From assembly GCA_018820745.1 (NCBI GenBank), contig JAHJNP010000387.1, positions 1 to 7,010 of the forward strand: a stretch of DNA of 7,010 nt, read 5' to 3'. Positions 2,703 to 5,172 of this stretch are shown in pieces; position 1 is the stretch's first letter, and the number at the start of each line of letters is the position of its first letter. The notes under the pieces were generated by a model. The model saw nothing but the letters and a program-made list of their open reading frames with translations. It made no database searches and was not told the DNA's origin. Origin of the DNA: Gammaproteobacteria bacterium. Lineage in GTDB: Bacteria > Pseudomonadota > Gammaproteobacteria > Burkholderiales > Thiobacillaceae. Position numbers and translations under genes: made by a program.

Positions 2703-2719
2703 TGCACCACAACCGTTCA
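2703..2719 (+). promoter_or_regulatory. Candidate NtrC-type enhancer site upstream of nasT
   Basis: TGCACC-ACAAC-CGTTCA matches the NtrC-type dyad TGCACC-N5-GGTGCA at 10 of 12 positions. Its centre (2711) is 74 bp upstream of the first base of the sigma-54 element and about 100 bp before the predicted transcription start. The same spacing recurs at the two other sigma-54 promoters of this window. Confidence 0.6.
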
Positions 2720-2784
2720 CGCAGACACGCCCACCCGAACCCGCACAAACACATAAGTATTTGATAATCAAACACTCTCGAATC

Positions 2785-2800
2785 TGGCACGCCCCCTGCT
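2785..2800 (+). promoter_or_regulatory. Sigma-54 (-24/-12) promoter of nasT
   Basis: TGGCACGCCCCCTGCT matches the consensus TGGCACG-N4-TTGCA/T with correct GG-to-GC spacing and only one consensus base changed (T to C just before TGC). The predicted transcription start is near 2811, giving a leader of about 105 nt that contains the terminator at 2862-2889. Confidence 0.78.
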
Positions 2801-2861
2801 ATATCTCAAGTGAGTTTCCAAACCGCAAGGCCAGGTTGCTCAGGCAGTCTCCTCCGATTTT

Positions 2862-2889
2862 GCGGCCTCTCCGGAGGCCGCCTTTTTTT
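2862..2889 (+). terminator. Intrinsic terminator inside the nasT leader
   Basis: A perfect 8-bp GC stem (GCGGCCTC at 2862-2869 with GAGGCCGC at 2874-2881) with a TCCG loop is followed by C and seven T. It lies downstream of the predicted sigma-54 start and 26 bp before the nasT ATG, so it should act as an attenuator for nasT. A clear ANTAR two-hairpin target is not seen before it. The nearest candidate is AACC/GGTT (2821-2837), which can hold a CAAGGC loop that has G4 but lacks A1. Confidence 0.82.
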
Positions 2890-2915
2890 CCAGATCGGAA
2901 AAACATGAACCGAAC

Positions 2916-3479
2916 ATGCGTGTCTTGATCGTTGAAAACCAGCCCGAGCGGCTGGCGATGCTGGTGCCGGCGCTGGAAAAAGCGGGCTGCGTGGTCACCG
3001 CCACGCTCAATTCCGCGCGCAGCCTGGACGTCCAGATCCAGGCGCTGCGCCCCGATGTGGTGATCATTGCGCAGGACTCGCCCGACCGGGACACGCTTGA
3101 ACACATCTGCGTGGTGAATCAGGATTGCCCGCGCCCCATTGTCATGTTCACCGGTGACGGCAGCCCCGACGCCATTCGCGCGGCAACGCAGGCCGGGGTG
3201 ACGTCGTATGTGGTGGACGGGCTCGACCCGGCGCGCCTCCGCCCGATTCTCGATGTGGCGGTGTCGCGCTTCGAGGCCTTTCAGGCGCTGCACGATCAAT
3301 TGGAACAAACCCGCCTGGAGCTGTCGGAACGCAAACTGATCGATCAGGCCAAGGCTTTGCTCATCAAACAAACGGGCGCCGCAGAACCCGAGGTGTACCG
3401 CGAGATGCGCCGCGCCGCCATGGACCGCGGCTTGCGCCTGGTGGACATCGCCCGGCAAGTGCTGCAGAAAACGGGATGA
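2916..3479 (+). CDS. nasT: ANTAR-domain transcription antiterminator, NasT type
   Basis: This 187-residue protein would bind leader RNA of nitrate-assimilation operons and prevent termination. In characterised systems a nitrate-sensing NrtA-like protein, NasS, holds NasT inactive. Residues 1 to about 120 are a receiver-like domain, 121-140 a linking helix (coiled-coil type), and about 130-187 the ANTAR RNA-binding domain (ERKLIDQAKALL, then YREMRRAAMDRGLRLVDIARQVL). The receiver is degenerate: the usual acidic pair after strand 1 is Glu7-Asn8, and the phosphoacceptor position at the end of strand 3 is Ala52 (VVIIAQDSPDRD, where I recall VILIDTESPSRD in NasT relatives). This fits control by protein binding rather than phosphorylation. 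The start at 2916 has only a weak ribosome site (GGAA at 2897-2900 is distant), but the receiver begins exactly there (MRVLIVEN). The two downstream leaders carry its likely RNA targets. Confidence 0.9.
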   Translation: MRVLIVENQPERLAMLVPALEKAGCVVTATLNSARSLDVQIQALRPDVVIIAQDSPDRDTLEHICVVNQDCPRPIVMFTGDGSPDAIRAATQAGVTSYVVDGLDPARLRPILDVAVSRFEAFQALHDQLEQTRLELSERKLIDQAKALLIKQTGAAEPEVYREMRRAAMDRGLRLVDIARQVLQKTG

Positions 3480-3493
3480 AAGCGTTTGGTGCA
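3477..3493 (+). promoter_or_regulatory. Candidate second NtrC-type site, overlapping the nasT stop
   Basis: TGAAAG-CGTTT-GGTGCA matches TGCACC-N5-GGTGCA at 9 of 12 positions, with one perfect half-site. Its centre (3485) is exactly 31 bp upstream of the next site (3516), about three helical turns, the arrangement expected for cooperating dimers. It begins on the TGA stop codon of nasT. Confidence 0.42.
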
Positions 3494-3507
3494 TCACACG
3501 CCTGGTG

Positions 3508-3524
3508 TGTCCGGAATCGGTGCA
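3508..3524 (+). promoter_or_regulatory. Candidate NtrC-type enhancer site of the first binding-protein gene
   Basis: TGTCCG-GAATC-GGTGCA matches the dyad at 9 of 12 positions, with a perfect right half. The centre is 73 bp upstream of the first base of the sigma-54 element. A separate perfect dyad CACAC-GCCTG-GTGTG (3496-3510) lies next to it and may add to or compete with binding. Confidence 0.5.
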
Positions 3525-3588: not shown

Positions 3589-3604
3589 AGGCACGGGCAT
3601 TGCT
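3589..3604 (+). promoter_or_regulatory. Sigma-54 promoter of the first NrtA-like gene
   Basis: AGGCACGGGCATTGCT is a near-perfect -24/-12 element: GGCACG-N4-TTGCT with exact spacing, differing only in the first base. The predicted start is near 3615, six bases before the first ANTAR hairpin, so the RNA begins almost directly with the antiterminator motif. Confidence 0.85.
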
Positions 3605-3620
3605 GGAATGGGGATGAAGC

Positions 3621-3677
3621 GCCGCAATGATGTGGCCTTGATAGACAACGCGATTGACTCTCGGACAAAGGCGTCCG
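3621..3677 (+). promoter_or_regulatory. ANTAR-protein RNA target (two hexaloop hairpins), leader 1
   Basis: Hairpin P1 is GCCGC (3621-3625), loop AATGAT, GTGGC (3632-3636). Hairpin P2 is CGGAC (3662-3666), loop AAAGGC, GTCCG (3673-3677). Both loops are six bases with A at position 1 and G at position 4, the signature recognised by ANTAR antiterminators. The linker is 25 nt. The 3' strand of P2 is also part of the 5' strand of the following terminator, so only one of the two can form. NasT binding should stabilise P2 and allow read-through. Confidence 0.85.
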
Positions 3678-3699
3678 CCCGCCGGGGCGACGCTTTTTT
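3671..3699 (+). terminator. Attenuator terminator, leader 1
   Basis: GCGTC (3671-3675) and GCCC (3677-3680) pair with GGGC (3685-3688) and GACGC (3689-3693), with a single bulged C and a GCCG loop. Six T follow. It lies about 80 bp before the ATG of the binding-protein gene and after its predicted transcription start. Confidence 0.88.
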
Positions 3700-3780
3700 A
3701 TTTATTCGACGCGACGCAACGTGTGCCGCGTCGGAGCCAGACCCGAATTCCAACTGCATGATCAGAGCAAGCGAGATTCC

Positions 3781-4998
3781 ATGAACAAGACGAAAGGGCT
3801 TTCCGTTGCCGCCGCGCTGATGGCGCTGGTGCCCCCAAGCGTGCGTCAGGGCGCATGGGCAGCCGGTTCAGACGCCCCCGAGAAGGTTGATGTGAAGATC
3901 GGCTTCATGCCGCTGACGGACTGCGCAAGCGTGGTGGTGGCTGCAGCCAAAGGGTTCGACAAAAAGTACGGCATCAACATCGTGCCCAGCAAGGAAGCCT
4001 CATGGGCTGCGGTGCGCGACAAGACCCTGAGTGGCGAACTCGACGCCGCTCACGTGCTGTACGGCCTGGTTTATGGCGTTCATCTGGGCATCGGCGGGCC
4101 GAAACAGGACATGGCCGTGCTGATGACCCTCAACAACAATGGCCAGGGCATCTCGCTCGCCAATCACCTGCTGCGCGAGGGGGTCACGGACGGCCCGGCG
4201 CTCGCCAGGCTGATCAAGACCGGGGCGCGCGAGTTCACCTTCGCCCACACGTTTCCCACCGGCACCCACGCGATGTGGCTGTATTACTGGCTGGCAAGCC
4301 ATGGGATCAATCCCTTCACCGAGGTCAAGACGATTACCGTGCCGCCGCCGGAAATGGTGGAAAACGCACGCATCGGGAACATGGACGGTTTCTGCGTCGG
4401 CGAACCGTGGAATGCGCGCGGCATCTTCGACAAGGTGAGCTTTTCGGTCGCATCATCCCAGGACGTCTGGGCCGACCACCCCGAAAAGGTGCTCGGCACG
4501 ACGGCCGGTTTTGTGAAGCGCCACCCCAACACCGCGCGCGCGATCACGATGGCCTTGCTTGAGGCCGCCCGATACATCGACAACCCCGAGAACCGTTCCG
4601 GGGTCGCCCGGCTGATTTCGGCCGAAGCGTATGTCAACGCACCGCTGGAAGTGATCGAAGGGCGCTTCCTCGGCAAATATGAAGATGGACGGGGCAAGGC
4701 ATGGGATGACCCGCACGCCATGCGCTTCTACAACGATGGCCGGGTACCCTTCCCCTACCTGTCCGACGGCATGTGGTTTCTCACCCAGCACAAGCGCTGG
4801 GGGTTGCTGAAAGCGCACCCGGACTACCTCGCCGTTGCCCGGCAGATCAACCAGATCGATCTATACACACAGGCCGCTATCCAGACCGGAACCCCCCTGC
4901 CCGAATCCGACATGCGCGCTTCAAGATTGATGGATGGCGTGGTGTGGGATGGCAAGCGCCCGGACGAGTATGCCGACAGCTTCGGGATCAAGTTCTGA
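3781..4998 (+). CDS. NrtA/CmpA-family ABC transporter substrate-binding protein with signal peptide (paralog 1)
   Basis: This 405-residue protein is likely a periplasmic binding protein for nitrate, nitrite or a related anion. The N-terminus looks like a Sec signal (MNKTK, hydrophobic 6-18, cleavage probably after AWA at 25-27). It has no lipobox, unlike its neighbour. Family landmarks in order are KIGFMPLTDCA (39-49), SWAAVRDK with Trp75, LNNNGQGIS (117-125), THAMWLYYWLASHGINP with His163 (162-178), VPPPEMV (187-193), MDGFCVGEPWN (201-211) and HPEKVLGTTAGF. At the place where the second paralog has Lys280 (EIWKNNPEKV) this one has Ala231 (DVWADHPEKV). That Lys probably corresponds to the nitrate-contacting Lys of cyanobacterial NrtA, so ligand preference may differ. 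It stands alone behind its own sigma-54 promoter and ANTAR attenuator, just after nasT. A NasS-like sensing role is possible, but the signal peptide argues against a cytoplasmic partner of NasT. The ribosome site is weak (GCGAG). Confidence 0.82.
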   Translation: MNKTKGLSVAAALMALVPPSVRQGAWAAGSDAPEKVDVKIGFMPLTDCASVVVAAAKGFDKKYGINIVPSKEASWAAVRDKTLSGELDAAHVLYGLVYGVHLGIGGPKQDMAVLMTLNNNGQGISLANHLLREGVTDGPALARLIKTGAREFTFAHTFPTGTHAMWLYYWLASHGINPFTEVKTITVPPPEMVENARIGNMDGFCVGEPWNARGIFDKVSFSVASSQDVWADHPEKVLGTTAGFVKRHPNTARAITMALLEAARYIDNPENRSGVARLISAEAYVNAPLEVIEGRFLGKYEDGRGKAWDDPHAMRFYNDGRVPFPYLSDGMWFLTQHKRWGLLKAHPDYLAVARQINQIDLYTQAAIQTGTPLPESDMRASRLMDGVVWDGKRPDEYADSFGIKF

Positions 4999-5076
4999 CA
5001 GGCCGGCCCCTGAGTGCCGCGGCCTGATGCGCGACGGCAACGGCGCGCACAGTTTGAGTCCCTCCCCGATGCATGC

Positions 5077-5093
5077 CGCACCATGACCGTGCA
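5077..5093 (+). promoter_or_regulatory. Candidate NtrC-type enhancer site of the nrtA-nrtB operon
   Basis: CGCACC-ATGAC-CGTGCA matches TGCACC-N5-GGTGCA at 10 of 12 positions. Its centre (5085) is 72 bp upstream of the first base of the sigma-54 element. A weaker match (7 of 12) lies at 5046-5062, 31 bp further upstream. Confidence 0.6.
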
Positions 5094-5150
5094 TTTTCAA
5101 CCCGGAAATGGCCAGTGCCGATTTATCAATCCTGACAAATCAGTCACTTA

Positions 5151-5172
5151 AGCAGCTGGCATGGTAGCTGCT
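5151..5172. repeat. Dyad overlapping the sigma-54 element
   Basis: AGCAGCT (5151-5157) and AGCTGCT (5166-5172) form a perfect 7-bp inverted repeat around the -24/-12 region. A second overlapping pair, GGTAG (5163-5167) and CTACC (5173-5177), is also present. These lie upstream of the predicted start, so they would act as DNA sites if they act at all. Confidence 0.5.
5157..5172 (+). promoter_or_regulatory. Sigma-54 promoter of the nrtA-nrtB operon
   Basis: TGGCATGGTAGCTGCT matches TGGCACG-N4-TTGCT with exact GG-to-GC spacing and two base differences. The predicted start is near 5183, giving a leader of about 178 nt. Confidence 0.72.

What the first reader, a model, noticed from the sequence alone, without database searches (positions are those of the whole stretch)
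2703..5172. Three sigma-54 control units with an NtrC-like dyad at almost the same distance
nasT and the two NrtA-like genes each have a -24/-12 element (2785-2800, 3589-3604, 5157-5172). Each is preceded by a match to TGCACC-N5-GGTGCA (10, 9 and 10 of 12 positions) whose centre lies 74, 73 and 72 bp from the first base of the element. The repeated spacing is hard to explain by chance. It indicates one nitrogen-limitation regulon over a regulator and two uptake proteins, with a separate promoter for each gene rather than one operon. Sequence matches are seen directly; NtrC as the activator is inferred.
Basis: partly seen in the sequence, partly recalled or inferred. Interest (0 to 1): 0.72.

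Follow-up and report, generated by a model that had tools for sequence, protein, structure and literature searches.

The report
Nitrate-uptake switches with a hidden RNA
In Thiobacillus, the regulator gene nasT and two nitrate-uptake-type genes each carry a conserved sigma-54-type promoter sequence with a likely NtrC site and, just after it, a likely RNA stop signal; the one in front of nasT contains a 14-letter motif shared by three genera and is predicted to be a new small regulatory RNA.

Summary
In detail: the three -24/-12 elements and dyads have the stated coordinates, scores and distances. They are the only plus-strand sites of 12 or more out of 14 in the window; Markov shuffles give 0.09 sites of 13 or more and no element-dyad pair in 300. 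In 34 Thiobacillus loci the elements before nasT and the next gene are kept in 34, with a 9/12 or better dyad 60-90 bp upstream in 26 and 30. NtrC/sigma-54 control is well supported but untested.

The first uptake gene's leader has the two-hairpin target of ANTAR antiterminators (32 of 34), the second's has one such hairpin (4 of 4), nirB's also one (9 of 10): NalA/NasT-like control.

The nasT leader differs: no conserved ANTAR hairpins, but a covarying hairpin, a core GCAGTCTCCTCCGA (exact in 38 of 41 leaders from three genera) and a terminator. It was found only before nasT, or with a damaged core where nasT is deleted; no Rfam match. Most likely a sigma-54-made small RNA with an anti-Shine-Dalgarno-like seed, nasT reached by read-through. 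Trans action is inferred; no target was established.

The parts
2703..2719 (+). NtrC-like dyad of the nasT unit (10/12)
   Evidence: a dyad of 9/12 or better 60-90 bp upstream in 26 of 34 loci
2785..2800 (+). -24/-12 element of nasT; expected +1 near 2811 (inferred)
   Evidence: kept in 34 of 34 loci
2811..2842 (+). nasT leader RNA, hairpin 1
   Evidence: fold; compensatory changes
2844..2857 (+). Core GCAGTCTCCTCCGA (anti-Shine-Dalgarno-like) of the nasT leader RNA
   Evidence: exact in 31 of 34 Thiobacillus leaders and in 7 of 7 leaders of two other genera
2862..2889 (+). Intrinsic terminator of the nasT leader RNA (8-bp stem, T7)
2916..3479 (+). nasT: receiver-like plus ANTAR domain (187 aa)
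   Evidence: Pfam PF00072, PF03861
3508..3524 (+). NtrC-like dyad of uptake gene 1 (9/12, weakest of the three)
3589..3604 (+). -24/-12 element of uptake gene 1; expected +1 near 3615 (inferred)
3621..3636 (+). ANTAR-type hairpin P1, hexaloop AATGAT (A1, G4)
3662..3677 (+). ANTAR-type hairpin P2, hexaloop AAAGGC (A1, G4); overlaps the terminator's 5' arm
3667..3699 (+). Intrinsic terminator of the uptake gene 1 leader
3781..4998 (+). Uptake gene 1: NMT1_2 / NrtA-type binding protein, export signal likely (by eye); true start may be the in-frame GTG at 3721
5077..5093 (+). NtrC-like dyad of uptake gene 2 (10/12)
5157..5172 (+). -24/-12 element of uptake gene 2; expected +1 near 5183 (inferred)
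5232..5245 (+). ANTAR-type hairpin P2, hexaloop AACGGC; no A1/G4 hexaloop P1 found upstream
5239..5282 (+). Intrinsic terminator of the uptake gene 2 leader (T7)
5361..6794 (+). Uptake gene 2: NMT1_2 / NrtA-type binding protein, lipoprotein-like N-terminus (by eye)
6867..7010 (+). Start of the permease gene (nrtB position), cut by the contig end
   Evidence: 48 aa alone has no Pfam hit; BPD_transp_1 at the same position in L007 and L010

Best explanation
nasT and two predicted nitrate-uptake binding-protein genes each carry a conserved -24/-12 sequence with an upstream NtrC-like dyad and a predicted terminator hairpin just downstream, so each is likely started by NtrC and sigma-54 under nitrogen limitation and then held at a stop signal, which NasT is predicted to lift at the uptake genes, while the stop signal in front of nasT would release a separate small RNA. 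Shown from sequence: the elements, dyads and terminator-like hairpins with T runs, their conservation, the ANTAR-type hairpins, and a conserved nasT leader RNA (hairpin 1, 14-nt core, terminator). Inferred: NtrC as activator; NasT antiterminating uptake genes 1 and 2 and nirB in response to nitrate. Inferred and less sure: the about 79-nt nasT leader RNA acts in trans as a small RNA whose core (UCUCCUCC) pairs with ribosome-binding sites of target mRNAs, nasT itself being made by partial read-through. Two signals would thus have to agree before uptake genes are made (little ammonium, nitrate present), and the regulator's promoter would deliver a riboregulator at the same time.
For: Promoters and dyads above chance and conserved. 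NtrC present in relatives. Terminators after each element in the window. Uptake gene 1 leader: hexaloop hairpins with A1 and G4, both in 32 of 34 loci, P1 only in L009, P2 only in L010; P2 overlaps the terminator, as in the EutV, NasR and AmiR targets described in PMC3369931 (passages). nirB: element and dyad at 80-86 bp in 9 of 10, AACGGC hexaloop hairpin in 9 of 10. nasT leader: of 56 genus genomes, 37 hold a nasT orthologue (E below 1e-90); covariance model R1 matches 34 of these 37, each match lying directly upstream of nasT (coordinates compared by eye), and none of the other 19 at E 0.01 or better. It also matches 7 genomes of two further genera, each upstream of nasT. In an alignment of 17 selected leaders the 14-nt core is the only invariant run longer than two positions; hairpin 1 has compensatory changes at 5 of 8 pairs, 20 cells against 7.0 +/- 2.0 in shuffles, 0 of 500 reaching it. 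The UCUCCUC stretch is more often unpaired than the RNA as a whole (0.69 against 0.44, mean of 33 leaders). Three of the 5 unlinked exact core matches in 399 order genomes read, on the other strand, as an SD sequence in front of a start codon (by eye). G013 keeps promoter and dyad but lacks the RNA and its terminator, so nasT does not need them (by eye). Precedents: alpha-r14 RNAs have an ultraconserved CCUCCUCCC in unpaired regions while their stems differ (PMC10746234, passages); NrsZ is an NtrC/sigma-54-made sRNA (PMC8395346, passages).
Against: No transcript data. No target established: matches with at most 1 mismatch to the core's complement in 8 genomes number 21, 8 of them the locus itself; the other 13 compare with 7 for the reversed control pattern, and the two that sit right before a start codon (L140 in G025, L143 in G047) were each seen in one genome only. 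The RNA was not found away from nasT with an intact core: the second copy in G159 also precedes a nasT paralogue, and in G060, where nasT is deleted, the element and hairpin 1 remain, the terminator hairpin is recognisable but mismatched, and the core differs at 4 of 14 positions; this fits a core whose role depends on nasT as well as, or better than, an independent sRNA. Minimum-energy folds of many leaders pair part of the core in a weak 4-bp hairpin. On the covariation count two of the measures are not striking: pairs changed on both sides, 39 of 500 shuffles reach it, and further pair types, 172 of 500; pair 8/27 fails in 9 of 17. L023 and L034 lack 3 nt within the core; L037, G011 and G013 lack the core. 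Uptake gene 2 has only one ANTAR hairpin. How NasT would sense nitrate is open: 4 of 18 genus genomes (G011 and G023 in one contig, G002, G006) hold only one NasS-like homologue, the uptake protein itself, though 9 of 18 have a second one of 36-37% identity elsewhere that was not examined.
Confidence: 0.55

Rival explanations
1. The nasT leader RNA is a cis-acting attenuator only: an unknown factor (NasT itself by a non-hexaloop mode, a ribosome-associated factor or another protein) binds the core and sets read-through into nasT, giving feedback on the regulator; the short RNA is just a terminated by-product.
For: All strong matches lie in front of nasT except G060; the core is damaged where nasT is lost (G060); NalA in Pseudomonas is a sigma-54-made terminated leader acting in cis through NasT (PMC12830290, passages).
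Against: No A1/G4 hexaloop hairpin in 32 of 34 nasT leaders, and the two hits (L029, L039) are weak and at different places; the core does not pair consistently with the terminator, whose sequence changes between genera; nasT occurs without the leader in G013 and without the core in G011 and G042.
Confidence: 0.33
2. Plain NtrC/sigma-54 regulon; the leaders are ordinary untranslated regions without regulatory role.
For: Promoter and dyad conservation.
Against: Terminators in all three leaders of the window, ANTAR-type hairpins kept in 32 of 34, and a covarying leader RNA with a conserved core.
Confidence: 0.05
3. The sigma-54 sites are real but the activator is another enhancer-binding protein of the NtrC class with a similar site.
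For: 42-58 matches to the NtrC model per genome searched, many to the receiver part only; several dyads are degenerate (8-9 of 12).
Against: The consensus TGCACC-N5-GGTGCA is that of NtrC (recalled); of the genes examined here those that carry it are nitrogen genes (nasT, uptake, nirB), though no genome-wide survey of dyads was made; 12/12 matches at uptake gene 1 in L012, L018 and L019.
Confidence: 0.1

Closest known systems
NalA leader / NasT antitermination of nirBD in Pseudomonas (sigma-54 and NtrC start, NasT lifts termination; PMC12830290, passages)
   Same: sigma-54/NtrC-type promoter, terminated leader, ANTAR protein NasT, nitrate-assimilation genes
   Different: Here separate units on each uptake gene and on nasT itself; no nasS beside nasT in the window; nasT leader not of ANTAR type
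nasTS / nasA of Paracoccus denitrificans (PMC5424462, abstract and passages)
   Same: NtrC site at nasT, NasT-dependent leader at the structural genes
   Different: There nasT and nasS are cotranscribed; no leader RNA of the kind seen here is described in the passages seen
alpha-r14 sRNAs such as NfeR1 of Sinorhizobium (PMC10746234, passages)
   Same: Ultraconserved CCUCC-rich anti-SD motif in unpaired regions while stems differ; tied to nitrogen control
   Different: Different core, one motif instead of three, NtrC predicted to activate rather than repress, lies in an mRNA leader
NrsZ of Pseudomonas (PMC8395346, passages)
   Same: Small RNA made by NtrC and sigma-54 under nitrogen limitation
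   Different: Intergenic next to ntrC, about 226 nt and processed; no sequence link tested

Membership tests
NtrC/sigma-54 promoter | -24/-12 GG-N10-GC element | tested here: met
   3 of 3 in the window; nasT and next gene 34 of 34 each in the loci compared
NtrC/sigma-54 promoter | NtrC dyad upstream at fixed distance, above chance | tested here: met
   weakest for 3508-3524
NtrC/sigma-54 promoter | NtrC binding and RpoN dependence | not testable with these tools
   needs footprints and mutants
ANTAR antitermination leader (uptake gene 1) | Two short hairpins with hexaloops, A at 1 and G at 4 | tested here: met
   both in 32 of 34; definition from PMC3369931 (passages)
ANTAR antitermination leader (uptake gene 1) | Second hairpin overlaps an intrinsic terminator | tested here: met
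   (window)
ANTAR antitermination leader (uptake gene 1) | NasT binding and read-through | not testable with these tools
   needs gel shifts and reporter fusions
ANTAR antitermination leader (uptake gene 2) | Two short hairpins with hexaloops, A at 1 and G at 4 | tested here: not met
   only P2 in 4 of 4
ANTAR antitermination leader (nasT) | Two short hairpins with hexaloops, A at 1 and G at 4 | tested here: not met
   none in 32 of 34, weak single hits in L029 and L039
NasS-NasT two-component pair | nasS next to nasT, a cytoplasmic nitrate sensor | tested here: inconclusive
   The neighbour of that superfamily has a likely export signal (by eye); 4 of 18 genomes hold no second homologue, 9 of 18 have a second one of 36-37% that was not examined
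Trans-acting anti-SD small RNA | Own promoter, terminator, conserved structure and mostly unpaired C-rich seed | tested here: met
   (sequence prediction only)
Trans-acting anti-SD small RNA | Base-paired mRNA targets | tested here: inconclusive
   no shared target found with a strict pattern in 8 genomes
Any Rfam 15 family | Covariance-model match | tested here: not met
   at E up to 1 only two miRNA-type matches at 102-171, below their cut-off

The most novel reading that the evidence does not exclude
The nasT leader encodes a previously undescribed nitrogen-limitation small RNA of Thiobacillus and its relatives: an NtrC/sigma-54-made, about 79-nt RNA with one ultraconserved GCAGUCUCCUCCGA seed that silences mRNAs at their ribosome-binding sites, made from the same promoter as the nitrate regulator so that protein and RNA arms of the response are fixed in ratio by termination.
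Probability: 0.42. Interest if true: 0.72.

Novelty: new variant of a known kind. Interest (0 to 1): 0.52.

Why it matters
It makes a testable two-key circuit for nitrate uptake in a group of autotrophic sulfur-oxidising bacteria: nitrogen need (NtrC) would start transcription, NasT would decide whether it goes on. The conserved RNA in front of nasT has no Rfam match and, if it acts in trans, would couple a regulator gene and a riboregulator at one promoter. A NasT with alanine at the expected phospho-acceptor position and, in some genomes, no evident NasS partner raises the question of how it senses nitrate.

Tried and rejected
Leader peptide under the core: rejected; the core is read in different frames in different genera and its wobble positions do not vary (by eye). 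Core as antiterminator arm: rejected as a general rule, the terminator sequence changes between genera without matching change in the core. Known RNA family: no Rfam match. Unlinked copies of the RNA as proof of trans action: looked for in 399 order genomes by exact core (8 genomes with a match: 3 nasT leaders and 5 other sites without flanking hairpins or T run by eye), in 117 family genomes by model R3 (42 genomes with E below 1e-6, all in front of nasT except G060; further weak hits at E 0.005-0.009 in G007, G024, G060, G078, G086 and G172 taken as chance and not examined) and in 369 class genomes at E 1e-4 (only the own genome); no intact copy away from nasT. R1 hits in G179 and G213 lack the core and have no nasT match in the stretch fetched; taken as chance. 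Targets: the ntrB start in two genomes has no GGAGG (by eye); starts of the uptake genes and nirB pair with at most about 5 bases of the core (by eye). Covariation for the ANTAR hairpins: P2 is invariant and P1 varies on one side only, 274 of 500 shuffles reach the observed score, so covariation neither supports nor opposes them. Within Thiobacillus alone hairpin 1 and terminator show 2 pairs changed on both sides, 6 cells against 0.8 in shuffles. Not in print: searches (listings) showed no paper on a nasT leader RNA in Thiobacillus; the library holds open-licence papers only.

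
Full report
What is there. The window lies in a fragmented genome (G000:C376) whose close relatives are mostly named Thiobacillus or Hydrogenophilales. It holds nasT (187 aa; receiver-like plus ANTAR domain) and two NMT1_2 binding proteins; a permease gene follows, identified from the same position in L007 and L010.

More than chance. With a hand-weighted consensus (recalled) the three sites are the only plus-strand ones of 12 or more out of 14 in 7 kb; 300 Markov shuffles give 0.09 sites of 13 or more on average and no pair with a 9/12 dyad. 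In 34 loci (window plus L007-L039) the nasT element and the next gene's element are each kept in 34; a 9/12 or better dyad at 60-90 bp is kept in 26 and 30, and in 4 of 4 for uptake gene 2, against 1.6% of 38,068 background positions. In three of the 34 loci (L028, L030, L033) the next gene encodes a different binding protein, 42-43% identical to uptake gene 1. Best-dyad distances cluster at 73-74 bp (nasT, 24 of 26) and 84-86 bp (next gene, 27 of 30), with 80-86 bp at nirB (9 of 10) and 62-63 bp for nasT in genus g6 (4 of 4): about one helical turn apart. Genus g12 shows its best dyads (8-9 of 12) at 106-118 bp. No test of phasing was run.

Terminators and ANTAR hairpins. In the window each element is followed by a strong hairpin with a T run at about +73 to +100 from the expected start, before the start codon. 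The leader of uptake gene 1 holds two short hairpins with hexaloops having A at 1 and G at 4 (3621-3636 and 3662-3677), both in 32 of 34 loci; the second overlaps the terminator. This is the target described for EutV, NasR and AmiR (PMC3369931, passages). Uptake gene 2 has the second hairpin only (4 of 4). Model R2, built from uptake gene 1 leaders, gives one strong match in each of 24 of 36 Thiobacillus genomes searched; further matches are weak, E 0.005 or more. nirB adds a further unit: element and dyad in 9 of 10, one AACGGC hexaloop hairpin in 9 of 10. Start by NtrC and sigma-54 plus NasT antitermination is described for the NalA leader of Pseudomonas nirBD (PMC12830290, passages); so these units look like new members of a known kind.

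The nasT leader is different. It has no conserved ANTAR hairpin. It folds as hairpin 1 (2811-2842), a 14-nt core (2844-2857) and a terminator (2862-2889). Model R1 matches 34 of the 37 genus genomes with a nasT orthologue and none of the other 19, and 7 genomes of two other genera, all in front of nasT. The core is exact in 31 of 34 Thiobacillus leaders and 7 of 7 others. In an alignment of 17 selected leaders the core is the only invariant run longer than two positions; hairpin 1 changes sequence but keeps pairing in 91% of cells, with 20 compensatory cells against 7.0 +/- 2.0 in shuffles. The alignment left out L023 and L034, which lack 3 nt within the core, and L037, which lacks the RNA. 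The core holds CUCCUCC, complementary to a Shine-Dalgarno sequence, and its UCUCCUC stretch is less paired than the RNA as a whole, although many minimum-energy folds pair part of it weakly.

Natural experiments. G013 keeps dyad and element but has no leader RNA; nasT follows at once. G011 and G042 keep the promoter with another leader. So nasT does not need the RNA. G159 has two nasT-type genes, each with the RNA. In G060 nasT and part of the next gene are gone; element and hairpin 1 remain, the terminator hairpin is recognisable but mismatched, and the core differs at 4 of 14 positions. So in the genomes seen the core is intact only together with nasT.

How it most likely works. NtrC and sigma-54 start all units when ammonium is scarce (inferred). 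At the uptake genes and nirB NasT would lift termination when nitrate is present (inferred from the hairpins; no clear terminator was shown at nirB). At nasT most transcripts would stop after about 79 nt and the rest would read through into nasT (inferred). I favour trans action of the short RNA because a conserved, mostly unpaired anti-SD-like seed between changing stems is the pattern of alpha-r14 RNAs (PMC10746234, passages), because the terminator shows no consistent link to the core, and because nasT can do without it. The cis rival keeps about one third of the weight: no target was established and no intact copy was found apart from nasT.

Sensing. The receiver-like domain has alanine where the phospho-acceptor aspartate is expected (IIAQDSP or IIATDSP in the 35 proteins listed; position judged by eye), whereas the paralogue in G159 reads IDTESP. 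In 4 of 18 genus genomes, two of them in one contig (G011, G023), the uptake protein is the only match to a NasS-like query; 9 of 18 have a second match of 36-37% identity that was not examined. The uptake protein has a likely export signal (by eye). How NasT senses nitrate here is open.

Noticed in passing
nirB upstream regions, L176-L185: nirB carries the same kind of unit: -24/-12 element with dyad at 80-86 bp in 9 of 10 and one A1/G4 hexaloop hairpin in 9 of 10; the window genome's own nirB fragment was not examined.
   Followed up: partly
window 2916-3479: NasT has Ala at the expected phospho-acceptor position (VIIAQDSP), as have the 35 genus proteins listed.
   Followed up: partly
G011, G023 (one contig each), G002, G006: No NasS-like homologue other than the uptake protein beside nasT; 9 of 18 genomes have a second one of 36-37% elsewhere, not examined.
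   Followed up: partly
window 5361-6794: The second uptake protein with its own unit was found in 4 of 34 loci (window, L007, L008, L010); some other loci end soon after uptake gene 1. In L018 the permease and in L011 a globin gene follow uptake gene 1.
   Followed up: partly
window 2281-2616: Long imperfect inverted repeat (51-nt arms 84% complementary, 77-nt arms 70%) between the hydrolase gene and the nasT promoter, looking like a small mobile or palindromic element.
   Followed up: no
L122 and L123, upstream of ntrB: TGGCACAATCACTGCT and TGGCACAATCAGTGCT lie just upstream of the likely ntrB start, so ntrBC may have a sigma-54 element too (by eye).
   Followed up: no
L174 (G159): A second nasT paralogue with its own sigma-54 element and leader RNA copy, followed by a gene of unknown, sensor-like type.
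   Followed up: partly
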